Shown here one piece after another: positions 23,679 through 32,026 of a DNA stretch of 64,000 nt (position 1 is the first letter of the stretch; the number at the start of each line of letters is the position of its first letter). Both the position numbers and the translations under genes were made by a program. Under the pieces are notes generated by a model, which searched no databases, was not told the origin of the DNA, and saw only the letters and a list, made by a program, of their open reading frames with translations. This DNA is from Solirubrobacteraceae bacterium (lineage in GTDB: Bacteria; Actinomycetota; Thermoleophilia; Solirubrobacterales; Solirubrobacteraceae), in the NCBI GenBank assembly GCA_029263125.1, contig JAJCYD010000014.1, forward strand, positions 1-64,000, given 5' to 3'.

Positions 23679-24433
23679 TCAGGCGACCGGGGTGATGGCG
23701 GCAGTGACGACCAGCTTGCCTCGTACATGACGGGTTTCGGTCTTCTCCAGCGCCGCCACCGCTTCCTCGAACGGATAGATCTGTTCGAGGACCACCCGGA
23801 TGTGTCCGTCGGCGATTGCTGCCAGCAGCTCGGCCATGTCCCGGCGGGCGTCGGCGCGATGCACGACGTGCTCAACTCGGACCTTGCGCTCCGGTTCGAA
23901 GGTGTCGCCGGAGACGGTTACGACACGCCGCCCTGGCGGACGACGAACTGGCTCGGCACGCGGGTTCCCGGTTGGATCGCCAGTGCGGCGTCGACGCCTC
24001 CTGGCACGCATGGCCTGACCTGCTCCTGCCAGAGTGGGGCGGTGTAGTCGACGGTCTTCTCGGCTCCGAGCGAGAGCAGGTAGTCGTGGCGCGCAGAGGA
24101 TGACCCGCCGACTCGGATCCCACGGGCCAGTGGCCATCTGGATGACCAGGGTGCCGATCGCTCCAGAGGCGCCCGCCACGAACAGGGTGTCGCCGCTTCG
24201 GAGGTCGAGGTGTGCAGGCTCTCCACCGCCGTCTTGCCGGCGATCGGGATGCCGGCAGCCGTCAGGAAGTCCAGCGGATCGGGCATCCGGGTGAGCGATG
24301 TCTCGCCGACGACGGCGAGCTCCGCCCAGGTTTCGCCCTTGGGATTCAGCGCGCCGGACAGCCCTGCAACACGCCTGAAGCGGCGGTAGTCGACGCGCCA
24401 ATCAGAGCCAGCTGCCGGGTGCGGCGTCGGCAA
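23679..24433 (-). pseudogene. Zinc-less quinone oxidoreductase (MDR family), multiple frameshifts
   Basis: Pieces of an NADP-dependent medium-chain reductase appear in order, but in different frames: GETWAELAVVGETSLTRMPD, PLDFLTAAGIPIAGKTAVES, LRSGDTLFVAGASGAIGTLV (nucleotide loop), LLSLGAEKTVDYTAPLWQEQ and IYPFEEAVAALEKTETRHVR. At least three frame changes separate them and the first ~80 residues are missing. The gene is dead as read. Confidence 0.85.
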
Positions 24434-26684: not shown

Positions 26685-27011
26685 GTCAATCCGATGATGG
26701 ACAACCGGGTCCTTCACAGAACGCGCGGCCGGGACGCCTTGAGCGCGCTCTACGCTTGCCGAATGTACGACGCTGCCGACAGTGGGCCTGCGATGCCAGC
26801 GTGCCGGCGAGAGCGGGGTCAGCGGCGTCATCCTCGCCGTGATTTCCGGCAAGGGCGCCATCGGCGTGTGCTCACCGGTGCTCGACGCTACGGCAACAGC
26901 GTGCGCGGGGCTACTAGGGTGTGCGGCGAGATGTTGGAGCGCCTCGGGCTGCATGTCGTCGCCACCGAAGCCGAGGACGCCATCCTCGGCGGCGCCGTGC
27001 CGGTGCCGTAG
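26685..27011 (+). pseudogene. glsA: Glutaminase, C-terminal relic with two frameshifts
   Basis: The last ~110 residues of a GlsA-type glutaminase are spread over two frames: VNPMMDNRVLHRT and LYACRMYDAADS, then GESGVSGVILAVISGKGAIG and VCSPVLDA, then YGNSVRGATRVCGEMLERLG. The two shifts (about 26780 and 26887) compensate each other. The N-terminal two thirds are missing, including the SxxK catalytic serine. It ends 3 nt before the asparagine synthetase ATG, so it was once co-transcribed with it. Confidence 0.8.
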
Positions 27012-27014
27012 CGA

Positions 27015-28535
27015 ATGTCGGGGCTCGTCGCCGCATTCGGACCGTTCGAGCCGGGTCTCGGCCGGCGGATGCTCACGCGCCTGGCCCATCGCGGGCCCGA
27101 CGGCGAAGGATCGCGGCAGGTGGCCGACGCGTGGCTCGGCCACCGCCGGCTCGCCACCGTCGACCTGCAGGGGGGCGCCCAGCCGCTCGGCAACGATGCG
27201 GGCGACCTGTGGATAATCGGCGACGGGGAGATCTACAACCACCGGCGCCTGCGCACGGAGCTTGGCGAGCAGTCGTTTCGCACCGGCTCGGACCACGAGG
27301 CCGCCCTGCGCCTCTTCGAGCGCGAGGGTCTCGAGGGGGTCGAACGGCTATGGGGCACGTTCGCGTTCGTCATCGCGGGGGAGGACGGCCGCTTCGCGGC
27401 GGTTCGCGACAGGCTCGGCGTCGCACCGCTCTACTGGGCGCGCAGAAACGGCACCGTGCTGTTCGCGTCCGAGCTCAAGGCCTTCGACGAGGACTGGCGA
27501 GGCGAGGCGGAGCCCTTCCCGACCGGGCATGTGTGGACGCCCGACGACGGGCTCAGGGAGTGGGGCTCGCTGCCATCGGGCCCGGCGGTCCTCATGCGCA
27601 GCCGCCGTCCCGACGAGGACCCGCCGGAGTGGGTGTTCGCCGCGATCCGCGACTCGGTGGTCAGGGCGGTCGAATTCGCCCTGATCGCCGACGTCCCCGT
27701 CGGCGCCTTCCTCTCGGGTGGGCTCGACTCGAGCGTCGTCTGCGCCATCGCCGCGCGCTCCCTCCGCGAGCGCGGCCGGGCATTCAAGACCTTCGCCGCC
27801 GGCCTGAGCGGCAGCGCCGACCTGGTGGCGGCCCGCCGCGTCGCGAACCATGTCGGCAGCGAACACTACGAGCGCGTGTACACAGCCGACGAGGCGATCG
27901 CGCTGGTGCCCGAGGTGATCGGGGTGCTCGAGTCCTTCGACCCCATGCTCATCCACAGCGCGGTTCCAAACCATCTGGTGGCCACGCTGGCCCGCGAGCA
28001 CGTCAAGGCGGTCCTGGTCGGCGAGGGAGCGGACGAGCTCTTCGCCGGCTATTCCCACTATGCGGAGATCGAGACCGGGGACGAGCTGCACGATGAGCTG
28101 CTGGAGACGATTCGGGGGCTGCACAACCTCGGCCTCCAGCGTGTCGACCGGGTCACCAGCGACAACGCGATCGAGGCTCGGATCCCGTTCCTGGATATCG
28201 ACCTCGTCGAGCTGGCGCTCGCGCTCCCACCCGGCTGGAAGCTCACCAGCGAGAGCCGTCCGGAGAAGTGGCTGCTGCGCCGCGCCTTCGAGGGCTGGCT
28301 TCCTGATGACCTGCTCTGGCGCAGGAAGGAGCAGTTCGGTCAGGGCACGGGCATGGACGAGGTGTTGCGCGACCATTTCGGCGCGACCGTGAGCGAGACA
28401 GATCTCGAGCGCGAGCGCGACGCGCTCGATCCTCCGCTCCGCACGCGCGAGGAGCTCGCCTATTACCGGATCTTTATCGAGCGCCTGCCGGGCGTCGACG
28501 CCGGAAAGTCGATCGGCCGGTTCGTCGAGGCATGA
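27015..28535 (+). CDS. asnB: Asparagine synthetase B homologue without glutaminase nucleophile
   Basis: 506 aa. An Ntn-type N-terminal domain (1-~190; LAHRGPDGEG, GHRRLA) precedes a synthetase domain with the PP-loop SGGLDSS (234-240) and GEGADELFAGY, so aspartyl adenylation looks intact. The residue after Met is Ser (MSGLVAAFG), where glutamine-dependent AsnB enzymes have the essential Cys. The oxyanion motif NGEIYN reads DGEIYN (residues 70-75). Both changes predict no glutamine hydrolysis, so the enzyme would need free ammonia, perhaps once supplied by the glutaminase whose relic lies 3 nt upstream. Another acceptor or nitrogen donor cannot be excluded. Confidence 0.88.
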   Translation: MSGLVAAFGPFEPGLGRRMLTRLAHRGPDGEGSRQVADAWLGHRRLATVDLQGGAQPLGNDAGDLWIIGDGEIYNHRRLRTELGEQSFRTGSDHEAALRLFEREGLEGVERLWGTFAFVIAGEDGRFAAVRDRLGVAPLYWARRNGTVLFASELKAFDEDWRGEAEPFPTGHVWTPDDGLREWGSLPSGPAVLMRSRRPDEDPPEWVFAAIRDSVVRAVEFALIADVPVGAFLSGGLDSSVVCAIAARSLRERGRAFKTFAAGLSGSADLVAARRVANHVGSEHYERVYTADEAIALVPEVIGVLESFDPMLIHSAVPNHLVATLAREHVKAVLVGEGADELFAGYSHYAEIETGDELHDELLETIRGLHNLGLQRVDRVTSDNAIEARIPFLDIDLVELALALPPGWKLTSESRPEKWLLRRAFEGWLPDDLLWRRKEQFGQGTGMDEVLRDHFGATVSETDLERERDALDPPLRTREELAYYRIFIERLPGVDAGKSIGRFVEA

Positions 28536-30764: not shown

Positions 30765-31628
30765 CTACTTGGGCAGTGTCCAGAACCCGTCGAAACCGAC
30801 GTGGCGCTCCTCGGCAACACGCCCGAGCTGCTCGCGGGCGTCCTCGATCGGGATGTCGCAGACGACCGCTACCTCTTTTGTCGCCAGGGGCGTTCCGGTC
30901 CAGTGCAGGACCTCCTCAACCGACCCCGGGGGGTCGTGGCGCTCGACGCCCGGGACCAGGTTGGCGAGCACGACGTCGTATGCAGCGAATGGCTGAAACC
31001 CCGGGATTGAGATTCGCACGCCGTCGCTCGCTCGCGTCACCTCGTAGGACGGGCAGGTGTACCGTCGCCCACCCGACCAGTTCGCGAGCTTGTGGTCGAG
31101 GGCGCGGGCTGCCGGCATAGGTTGTCGTGCGAGCCGCATGTCCTCCCGTGTCGCCTCCTCGACGTCCGCGCCCGCCGCCAGGCGGGCGAGTTCCTCGGCG
31201 TCCATCCCGGCGTCGCGGGCGGCGCTGGCGATTACGTGCGGTTCATCGATCAGCTCACCGGAAAAGTTGCGGACGCGCAGGCAACGAAGCAACGACTGCT
31301 CGCGCTCGGGCTGGTGCAGACGGGCGGCGACAATCGCGTGGCACGCGGGCGCGGTCGCGGCAATCCGCGAGCGCGGCTGCGTGTCGATGGGCATCCCGTG
31401 TTTCCGAGAGATCTCGTGGAAGGCCTCGGCCATCCCCTCGGGCGTGAACCCGCGCTCGAGGTAGTCGTCAGCCGACTCGGCGAGAACGACCACCCGTACT
31501 TTCCAGTCGAGGCTGTCGCCGTAGAGCCATCTGAGCCGCCGCCGGAACGGCTCGGCGCTGTATGCCCATGGGCACGCGGGATCAGTGAACTCGGTGATGC
31601 AGACCTCTGCGGGGGCGGCTTCAGGCAT
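30765..31628 (-). CDS. DsbA/FrnE-family thioredoxin-fold protein
   Basis: 287 aa. ITEFTDPACPWAYSAEPFRR holds the active-site CPWA with only one Cys, as in FrnE-like and HCCA-isomerase-like members rather than CxxC DsbA; the alpha-helical insert follows (EISRKHGMPIDTQPRSRIAA). No signal peptide, so probably cytoplasmic. A C-terminal extension (VLHWTGTPLATKEVAVVCDI) resembles a winged-helix sensor. It overlaps the MFS relic by 8 bp. Confidence 0.82.
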   Translation of the reverse strand: MPEAAPAEVCITEFTDPACPWAYSAEPFRRRLRWLYGDSLDWKVRVVVLAESADDYLERGFTPEGMAEAFHEISRKHGMPIDTQPRSRIAATAPACHAIVAARLHQPEREQSLLRCLRVRNFSGELIDEPHVIASAARDAGMDAEELARLAAGADVEEATREDMRLARQPMPAARALDHKLANWSGGRRYTCPSYEVTRASDGVRISIPGFQPFAAYDVVLANLVPGVERHDPPGSVEEVLHWTGTPLATKEVAVVCDIPIEDAREQLGRVAEERHVGFDGFWTLPK

Positions 31629-32026
31629 CGTCGCTGGATACCCGCCTGACGCGTCGCGACAACGTGGAGCGGTTGACCGGTTCGCCCATGAGCGGCTGAT
31701 CGGTGCCTGCGACCGACGCCGCCTCGACCTCCTCGCCCGCCGGCGGGCACGCGGTGCAGGCCTGACTCGGATGGCGAGGCGCTGGGGAGGTCTCGCTCCC
31801 TCTGATCGTCGCCCACGAGATCAGGCCTCCGAGCGCGGCGATCGCGGCGGCGATCAGCATCGCCGTGCGAAAGCCCTCCGAGAAGGCGCCGGGCCCAACC
31901 GCGGTGCCGGCGCTCAGTCCCGCGGCCGCGGGCAAGGCAGCGACGGCGAGAAGCTGGGCGAGGCGTGCGGCGGCGATATTGACCGCCGAGGCGATGCCGG
32001 CGCGTTCGTCCGGTGAGTGAACGCTG
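31621..32026 (-). pseudogene. EmrB/QacA-type MFS exporter, C-terminal relic
   Basis: Open frame without a start: HSPDERAGIASAVNIAAARL, AQLLAVAALPAAAGLSAG, then FRTAMLIAAAIAALGGLISW and a Pro-rich tail. This is the last two helices of a 14-TM drug exporter. The upstream part is replaced by the fdhA gene 8 bp away. Confidence 0.8.

What the first reader, a model, noticed from the sequence alone, without database searches (positions are those of the whole stretch)
26685..28535. Asparagine synthetase lacking Cys nucleophile, 3 nt after a glutaminase relic
AsnB begins MSG instead of MCG and has DGEIYN instead of NGEIYN, so two key glutaminase-site residues are changed, while the synthetase PP-loop SGGLDSS is intact. 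A GlsA-type glutaminase relic ends 3 nt upstream. A stand-alone glutaminase may once have supplied ammonia to a glutaminase-dead AsnB: a split amidotransferase. Here the glutaminase has decayed, so the enzyme might now use free ammonia.
Basis: partly seen in the sequence, partly recalled or inferred. Interest (0 to 1): 0.75.

Follow-up and report, generated by a model that had tools for sequence, protein, structure and literature searches.

The report
Glutaminase-dead asparagine synthetase paired with GlsA
This gene belongs to a small family of actinobacterial asparagine-synthetase-like enzymes that have lost their built-in ability to take nitrogen from glutamine and that, in several unrelated gene arrangements including one gene fusion, travel with a separate glutaminase that could supply it instead.

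Summary
Window 27015-28535 (+) is an intact 506-aa AsnB-family protein beginning MSG with DGEIYN. A stop two codons upstream rules out an alternative Cys start. A frameshifted GlsA C-terminal third (26685-27011) ends 3 nt before it.

It is not a one-off. All 38 full-length Ser2 proteins aligned also carry Asp74 (Asn in 66/66 Cys relatives), form one clade (SH-aLRT 100), and span Solirubrobacterales, Micrococcales, Nitriliruptoria and Pseudonocardiaceae. GlsA lies within 7 kb in 20 of 32 scorable Ser2 loci against 1 of 17 Cys2 loci. Arrangements differ: divergent, across an OpuC-type osmoprotectant transporter operon (13/13 Micrococcales), tandem relic here, and one ORF fusing Ser2-AsnB to GlsA (848 aa). 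Two distant GlsA subfamilies were recruited.

Best reading: an amide synthetase that takes ammonia from an external GlsA-type glutaminase or, where GlsA is lost, free ammonia. Seven Saccharomonospora-type genomes keep the enzyme without any GlsA, so GlsA is not obligatory. The acceptor pocket is also altered (Arg324 to His, Asp/Asn384 to Gly), so the product may not be asparagine. Nothing was tested biochemically. A new variant of a known kind, as far as the open papers searched show.

The parts
27015..28535 (+). Ser2/Asp70-type AsnB-family amide synthetase, 506 aa, intact ORF
   Evidence: ORF; Pfam Asn_synthase + GATase_7; AlphaFold model pLDDT 87.7, best PDB match E. coli AsnB 1ct9, TM 0.86
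27018..27020 (+). TCG = Ser2, in place of the catalytic N-terminal Cys of class II amidotransferases
   Evidence: sequence; S in 38/38 clade members, C in 69/69 relatives
27222..27224 (+). GAC = Asp70 (E. coli Asn74, part of the glutaminase hydrogen-bond network)
   Evidence: D in 38/38 Ser2, N in all Cys2; Asn-74 role PMC6748925
27714..27734 (+). PP-loop SGGLDSS of the synthetase domain, intact
   Evidence: sequence; S234, G235, D238, S239 38/38
27954..27956 (+). CAC = His314 (E. coli Arg324, mature MG1655 numbering), clade-specific synthetase-domain change
   Evidence: H in 38/38 Ser2 and in 3 Cys2 intermediates, R in 66 other Cys2
28131..28133 (+). GGC = Gly373 (E. coli Asp384, human ASNS Asp-400 of the acceptor amino-group pocket)
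   Evidence: G in 38/38 Ser2, N in 65/66 Cys2; pocket role PMC6748925
26685..27011 (+). glsA relic: C-terminal third of a GlsA glutaminase, frameshifted, N-terminal two thirds lost
   Evidence: tblastn to L184/L020/L030/L042 GlsA, E 6e-19 best; PF04960 island 26806-26916
27009..27011 (+). TAG ending the relic frame, in frame with asnB, 3 nt before its ATG
   Evidence: sequence

Best explanation
The gene encodes an AsnB-family amide synthetase whose N-terminal (Ntn, class II) glutaminase domain is catalytically dead but kept as a folded scaffold. The synthetase domain activates a carboxylate (aspartate or a close analogue) with ATP, and the amide nitrogen comes as ammonia from outside the polypeptide. 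In most lineages of the clade that ammonia is supplied by a co-encoded GlsA (serine-dependent, beta-lactamase-fold) glutaminase, in one case fused to the same chain, which makes a split or re-assembled amidotransferase in which one glutaminase type replaced another. In the window's genome the co-encoded GlsA has decayed, and the enzyme presumably draws on free ammonia or on the second, unlinked GlsA. Shown by sequence: loss of glutaminase residues, intact synthetase residues, purifying selection, repeated GlsA linkage, one fused ORF. Inferred: no glutaminase activity, ammonia transfer from GlsA, the identity of the acceptor, the role of the neighbouring osmoprotectant transporter.
For: Ser2+Asp74+His324 in 38/38 and one clade, SH-aLRT 100. 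Further relaxation specific to Ser2 proteins around the glutamine site and tunnel mouth: Arg49 lost in 13/38, Glu76 in 6/38, Met120 and Lys143 invariant in 66 Cys2 but variable or lost in Ser2, while mean pairwise identity of the N-domain is unchanged (61% against 60%). GlsA within 7 kb in 20/32 Ser2 against 1/17 Cys2 loci, Fisher p 1.6e-4; without Micrococcales 7/19, p 0.04. Different arrangements: fusion L020/P0001 848 aa, no internal stop; divergent in L184, L030 and G1279; glsA-opuC operon convergent with asnB in 13/13 Micrococcales; tandem relic in the window. Long GlsA sits beside OpuC only where Ser2-asnB is present, 4/4 against 0/7 other copies. Two far-apart GlsA subfamilies recruited; Ser-x-x-Lys visible in the linked copies inspected (long L166 GlsA: Pfam). 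Purifying selection on the window gene.
Against: Seven Saccharomonospora-type Pseudonocardiaceae genomes keep Ser2-AsnB with no GlsA. In Nitriliruptoria most Ser2 loci lack adjacent GlsA. Actinomycetospora, the closest relative (80%), has GlsA only elsewhere. In Micrococcales glsA is co-directional with opuC and convergent with asnB, so co-transcription of glsA and asnB is not shown. The fusion is seen in a single MAG. The structural model of the fusion was uninformative for the GlsA part. No biochemical data.
Confidence: 0.6

Rival explanations
1. A plain ammonia-dependent amide synthetase. The linked GlsA belongs to a shared regulon (osmotic or nitrogen stress, e.g. glutamate supply) and does not deliver ammonia specifically to AsnB.
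For: Saccharomonospora-type genomes have no GlsA; Micrococcales glsA is co-directional with an osmoprotectant (proV-type, TIGR01186 over cut-off) transporter operon; OpuC lies beside Cys2 AsnB in 4/20 controls without GlsA.
Against: GlsA joins AsnB without OpuC in L030, G1279, L184, L020 and the window; a covalent fusion exists; long GlsA beside OpuC occurs only where Ser2-asnB is present.
Confidence: 0.25
2. The enzyme has changed acceptor and is no longer an asparagine synthetase: it amidates another aspartate-like acid, possibly in osmotic adaptation. Compatible with the best explanation for the nitrogen source.
For: Fixed changes at E. coli Arg324 to His, Asp384 (Asn in Cys2 relatives) to Gly, Thr346 to Ile/Val/Ala; genome has a separate Cys2 AsnB; neighbours are an osmoprotectant transporter and, in several, a NadE-like amidotransferase.
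Against: Glu348, Asp351 and Lys449 kept in 38/38; passes the TIGR01536 asparagine synthase cut-off; three Cys2/His324 intermediates exist.
Confidence: 0.4
3. Ser2 acts as a serine N-terminal nucleophile and the domain still hydrolyses glutamine or another amide.
For: Serine Ntn-hydrolases are known in other families (general knowledge); Asp98, Gly75 and the N-domain fold are kept.
Against: Asn74 is replaced by Asp in 38/38; Arg49 and Glu76 are relaxed; tunnel-mouth Met120 and Lys143 are relaxed.
Confidence: 0.05

Closest known systems
Glutamine-dependent asparagine synthetase AsnB / human ASNS (TIGR01536, PDB 1ct9, 6gq3)
   Same: Two-domain fold (TM 0.86 to 1ct9), PP-loop, Glu348/Asp351/Lys449
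   Different: Cys1 to Ser, Asn74 to Asp; Arg324 to His; Asp384 position Gly
Beta-lactam synthetase and carbapenam synthetase CarA (1jgt, 1q15)
   Same: AsnB-fold enzymes; that their Ntn domain is also non-functional is my recollection, not tested here
   Different: Only 20-23% identity in structural alignment; here the glutaminase is replaced by a GlsA partner, and the protein is much closer to AsnB
Two-subunit NAD synthetase of Thermus thermophilus (PMC3376133)
   Same: Ammonia-using synthetase paired with a separately encoded glutaminase subunit; fusion and split forms in one family
   Different: Different synthetase; the split pair here involves a GlsA-type glutaminase, and the old class II domain is retained as a dead scaffold
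GlsA/YbgJ glutaminase (PF04960, TIGR03814)
   Same: The linked partners are full GlsA proteins with Ser-x-x-Lys
   Different: GlsA is known to me only as a stand-alone catabolic enzyme, not as an amidotransferase subunit; the literature searched gave no precedent

Membership tests
Asparagine synthase, glutamine-hydrolysing (TIGR01536) | Profile score over curated cut-off | tested here: met
   357.3 bits against 267.1
Asparagine synthase, glutamine-hydrolysing (TIGR01536) | N-terminal Cys nucleophile | tested here: not met
   Ser2, no alternative upstream start
Asparagine synthase, glutamine-hydrolysing (TIGR01536) | Asn74 of the glutaminase site | tested here: not met
   Asp in 38/38
Asparagine synthase, glutamine-hydrolysing (TIGR01536) | PP-loop and synthetase residues | tested here: met
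   S234, G235, D238, S239, E348, D351, K449 38/38
Asparagine synthase, glutamine-hydrolysing (TIGR01536) | Aspartate is the acceptor | tested here: inconclusive
   Glu348/Asp351 kept, Arg324 and the Asp384 position changed
Split or fused glutamine amidotransferase with GlsA as glutaminase | GlsA gene linked or fused to the synthetase | tested here: met
   20/32 linked loci, one fusion; not met in Saccharomonospora-type genomes
Split or fused glutamine amidotransferase with GlsA as glutaminase | Ammonia transfer from GlsA to the synthetase | not testable with these tools
   needs biochemistry
N-acetylglutaminylglutamine amidotransferase (TIGR03104) | Profile score over cut-off | tested here: not met
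   212 bits against 570

The most novel reading that the evidence does not exclude
A new class of glutamine amidotransferase: an AsnB-type amide synthetase that gave up its Ntn glutaminase and re-acquired glutamine use by recruiting a beta-lactamase-fold GlsA glutaminase at least twice, in trans or as a fusion, and that makes an amide other than asparagine as part of an osmotic-adaptation module with an OpuC-type transporter.
Probability: 0.25. Interest if true: 0.8.

Novelty: new variant of a known kind. Interest (0 to 1): 0.62.

Why it matters
Public profile models call these proteins 'asparagine synthase (glutamine-hydrolyzing)', which is probably wrong on the glutamine half. If GlsA feeds them, it would be a glutaminase fold not known to me as an amidotransferase partner, seen here replacing a decaying one in nature, with intact, split, fused and relic stages available for direct test. 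The transporter link offers a physiological handle (osmotic stress) on what the amide is for.

Tried and rejected
Upstream Cys start: excluded by the in-frame TAG. Relic as sequencing error: unlikely, since the N-terminal two thirds are absent. GlsA beside OpuC as a general Micrococcales arrangement: rejected, 0/7 other long GlsA copies have it. N-acetylglutaminylglutamine amide enzyme (TIGR03104): score far under cut-off. Fusion structure prediction: the AsnB part folded, the GlsA part had pLDDT about 25-50 because no GlsA rows could be aligned (MAFFT placed the one GlsA row across AsnB), so domain docking is unknown. Literature searches for the combination of asparagine synthase, OpuC and GlsA gave nothing relevant. 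The search of Actinomycetospora relatives for an intact tandem glsA-asnB found Ser2-AsnB in only 1 of 18 genomes of that genus, without linked GlsA, which suggests horizontal transfer. Strict tight adjacency (1 kb or less) alone is not significant (5/37 against 0/19, p 0.15): the signal rests on the 7 kb window, chosen after seeing the Micrococcales arrangement.

Full report
What is there. Window 27015-28535 (+) is an intact 506-codon ORF whose product starts MSGLVAAFG and carries DGEIYNH at residues 70-76 and SGGLDSS at 234-240. Pfam and NCBIfam assign it to the AsnB family (Asn_synthase 233 bits; TIGR01536 357 bits against a cut-off of 267). An AlphaFold model (mean pLDDT 87.7) matches E. 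coli AsnB 1ct9 best, TM 0.86. The bases before it read TAG CGA ATG, so no longer N-terminus is possible. The 327 bases before the gene match GlsA residues 228-334 of about 335 (E 6e-19), with part of the homology shifted to another frame and no convincing match to the N-terminal two thirds, which carry the catalytic Ser-x-x-Lys. The synthetase gene is under purifying selection (dN/dS about 0.16 against the Actinomycetospora homologue). The genome retains another intact GlsA on contig C48 and an ordinary Cys2 AsnB on C17.

A clade, not an accident. Searches of genome collections recovered many relatives that begin M-S-[GA] and have Asp at E. coli position 74. Of 38 full-length Ser2 sequences aligned, 38 have Ser, 38 have Asp74 and 38 have His at E. 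coli position 324 (mature MG1655 numbering); Cys2 relatives have Cys and Asn74 throughout. Only five columns separate 38 Ser2 from 66 Cys2 proteins cleanly: window residues 2, 70, 314, 322 and 373. Two are glutaminase-site residues (Asn74 belongs to the hydrogen-bond network of the human glutaminase site, PMC6748925). Residue 373 corresponds to E. coli Asp384, human Asp-400, part of the pocket for the acceptor amino group in the same paper. Other glutamine-side positions that are fixed in Cys2 proteins (Arg49, Glu76, Met120, Lys143) vary or are lost in Ser2 proteins. Lys143 is at or next to the position of human Arg-142, proposed as a gate of the ammonia tunnel (PMC11615228). Mean identity within the N-terminal domain is the same in both groups (61% and 60%), so the domain is retained although its catalytic residues are not. 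In the tree (quick search, SH-aLRT only) Ser2 proteins form one clade with support 100; three Nitriliruptoria proteins that are Cys2/Asn74 but already His324 are its sister with support 85. This suggests a stepwise path: acceptor-side change first, loss of the glutaminase afterwards. I recall mutational work on E. coli AsnB in which replacing Cys1 abolishes glutamine use but not ammonia use; that was not checked here.

Linkage to GlsA. Fetched contexts show four arrangements. In Solirubrobacterales a MAG (L020, also found as G507) has one uninterrupted 848-aa ORF, Ser2-AsnB 1-505 followed after a short linker by a complete GlsA domain. A second genome (G499, L184) has glsA and asnB divergent with a 47-bp spacer. 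The window has the tandem relic. In Nitriliruptoria L030 and G1279 have divergent pairs. In all 13 Micrococcales contexts with enough sequence, a 600-aa GlsA (glutaminase + STAS + cyclic-nucleotide-binding domains) heads an operon-like series permease-ATPase-permease-binding protein of OpuC type (PF04069; proV-type ATPase over cut-off) that converges on the Ser2 asnB. Counting GlsA within 7 kb, Ser2 loci score 20/32 and Cys2 controls 1/17 (Fisher p 1.6e-4); leaving out Micrococcales, 7/19 (p 0.04). The window of 7 kb was chosen after the Micrococcales arrangement was seen, and loci within a clade are not independent, so the p-values are indicative only; tight adjacency alone (1 kb) is not significant. 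More telling are the changed orders, the fusion, and the use of two distant GlsA subfamilies. In a control, long GlsA sits beside OpuC only in genomes with Ser2-asnB (4/4), and 7 other long GlsA copies have no OpuC beside them.

Exceptions. GlsA is absent from all seven Saccharomonospora-type genomes searched (G456; six more), which keep Ser2-AsnB in a conserved but unrelated neighbourhood (luciferase-like protein, TetR regulator). In Actinomycetospora cinnamomea, the closest homologue (80%), GlsA is elsewhere in the genome. Only 1 of 18 genomes in its genus has the Ser2 gene, which points to horizontal transfer. GlsA is thus a frequent partner, not an obligatory one.

The transporter. OpuC-type genes also lie beside Cys2 AsnB in 4 of 20 controls and beside one Cys2/His324 intermediate (L084). 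The AsnB-transporter link therefore appears older than the loss of Cys, and GlsA appears where the built-in glutaminase has been lost. In several Nitriliruptoria and one Pseudonocardiaceae locus a NadE-like protein (nitrilase + NAD synthase domains) lies 40-200 bp from the Ser2 asnB.

Mechanism. Most likely the enzyme is an ammonia-using amide synthetase, served by GlsA where the two are linked. This works like the two-subunit NAD synthetase of Thermus thermophilus, where an ammonia-using subunit gains glutamine use from a separate glutaminase (PMC3376133). Whether ammonia is channelled or merely released nearby cannot be told from sequence. The acceptor is probably aspartate or similar, since Glu348 and Asp351 are kept, but the fixed changes at 324, 346 and 384 leave another product open.

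Novelty. Enzymes of this fold without glutaminase activity are known in antibiotic biosynthesis (from memory), and split amidotransferases are known. A GlsA-type glutaminase as the partner was not found in the literature searched, which covers only openly licensed PMC papers. I file it as a new variant of a known kind.

Noticed in passing
L075, L077, L081, L183, L254; also L084 beside a Cys2/His324 AsnB: A NadE-like protein (CN_hydrolase + NAD_synthase, about 595 aa) lies 40-200 bp from the Ser2 asnB in Nitriliruptoria and one Pseudonocardiaceae, a second glutamine-using amide synthetase in the same island.
   Followed up: partly
L232, L233, L236, L237: OpuC-type osmoprotectant transporter operon beside ordinary Cys2 AsnB in group f20 (Rubrobacteraceae-like by tree position), suggesting that the AsnB-transporter link predates loss of the Cys.
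   Followed up: partly
window 23679-24433 (-): Apparent zinc-dependent dehydrogenase pseudogene: ADH_zinc_N_2 match in one frame, an overlapping ORF in another frame reads like more of the same protein.
   Followed up: partly
window 31621-31935 (-): Short ORF resembling the C-terminal end of an MFS transporter, with no Pfam match; possibly another remnant, which would mean several decayed genes around the finding.
   Followed up: no
L176-L182: Conserved neighbourhood of Ser2-asnB in Saccharomonospora-type genomes (luciferase-like monooxygenase, TetR regulator, DUF218), with no GlsA in the genome.
   Followed up: partly
L071, L072, L085: Cys2/Asn74 AsnB paralogues that already carry His324, in genomes that also hold a Ser2 copy; possible intermediates.
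   Followed up: partly
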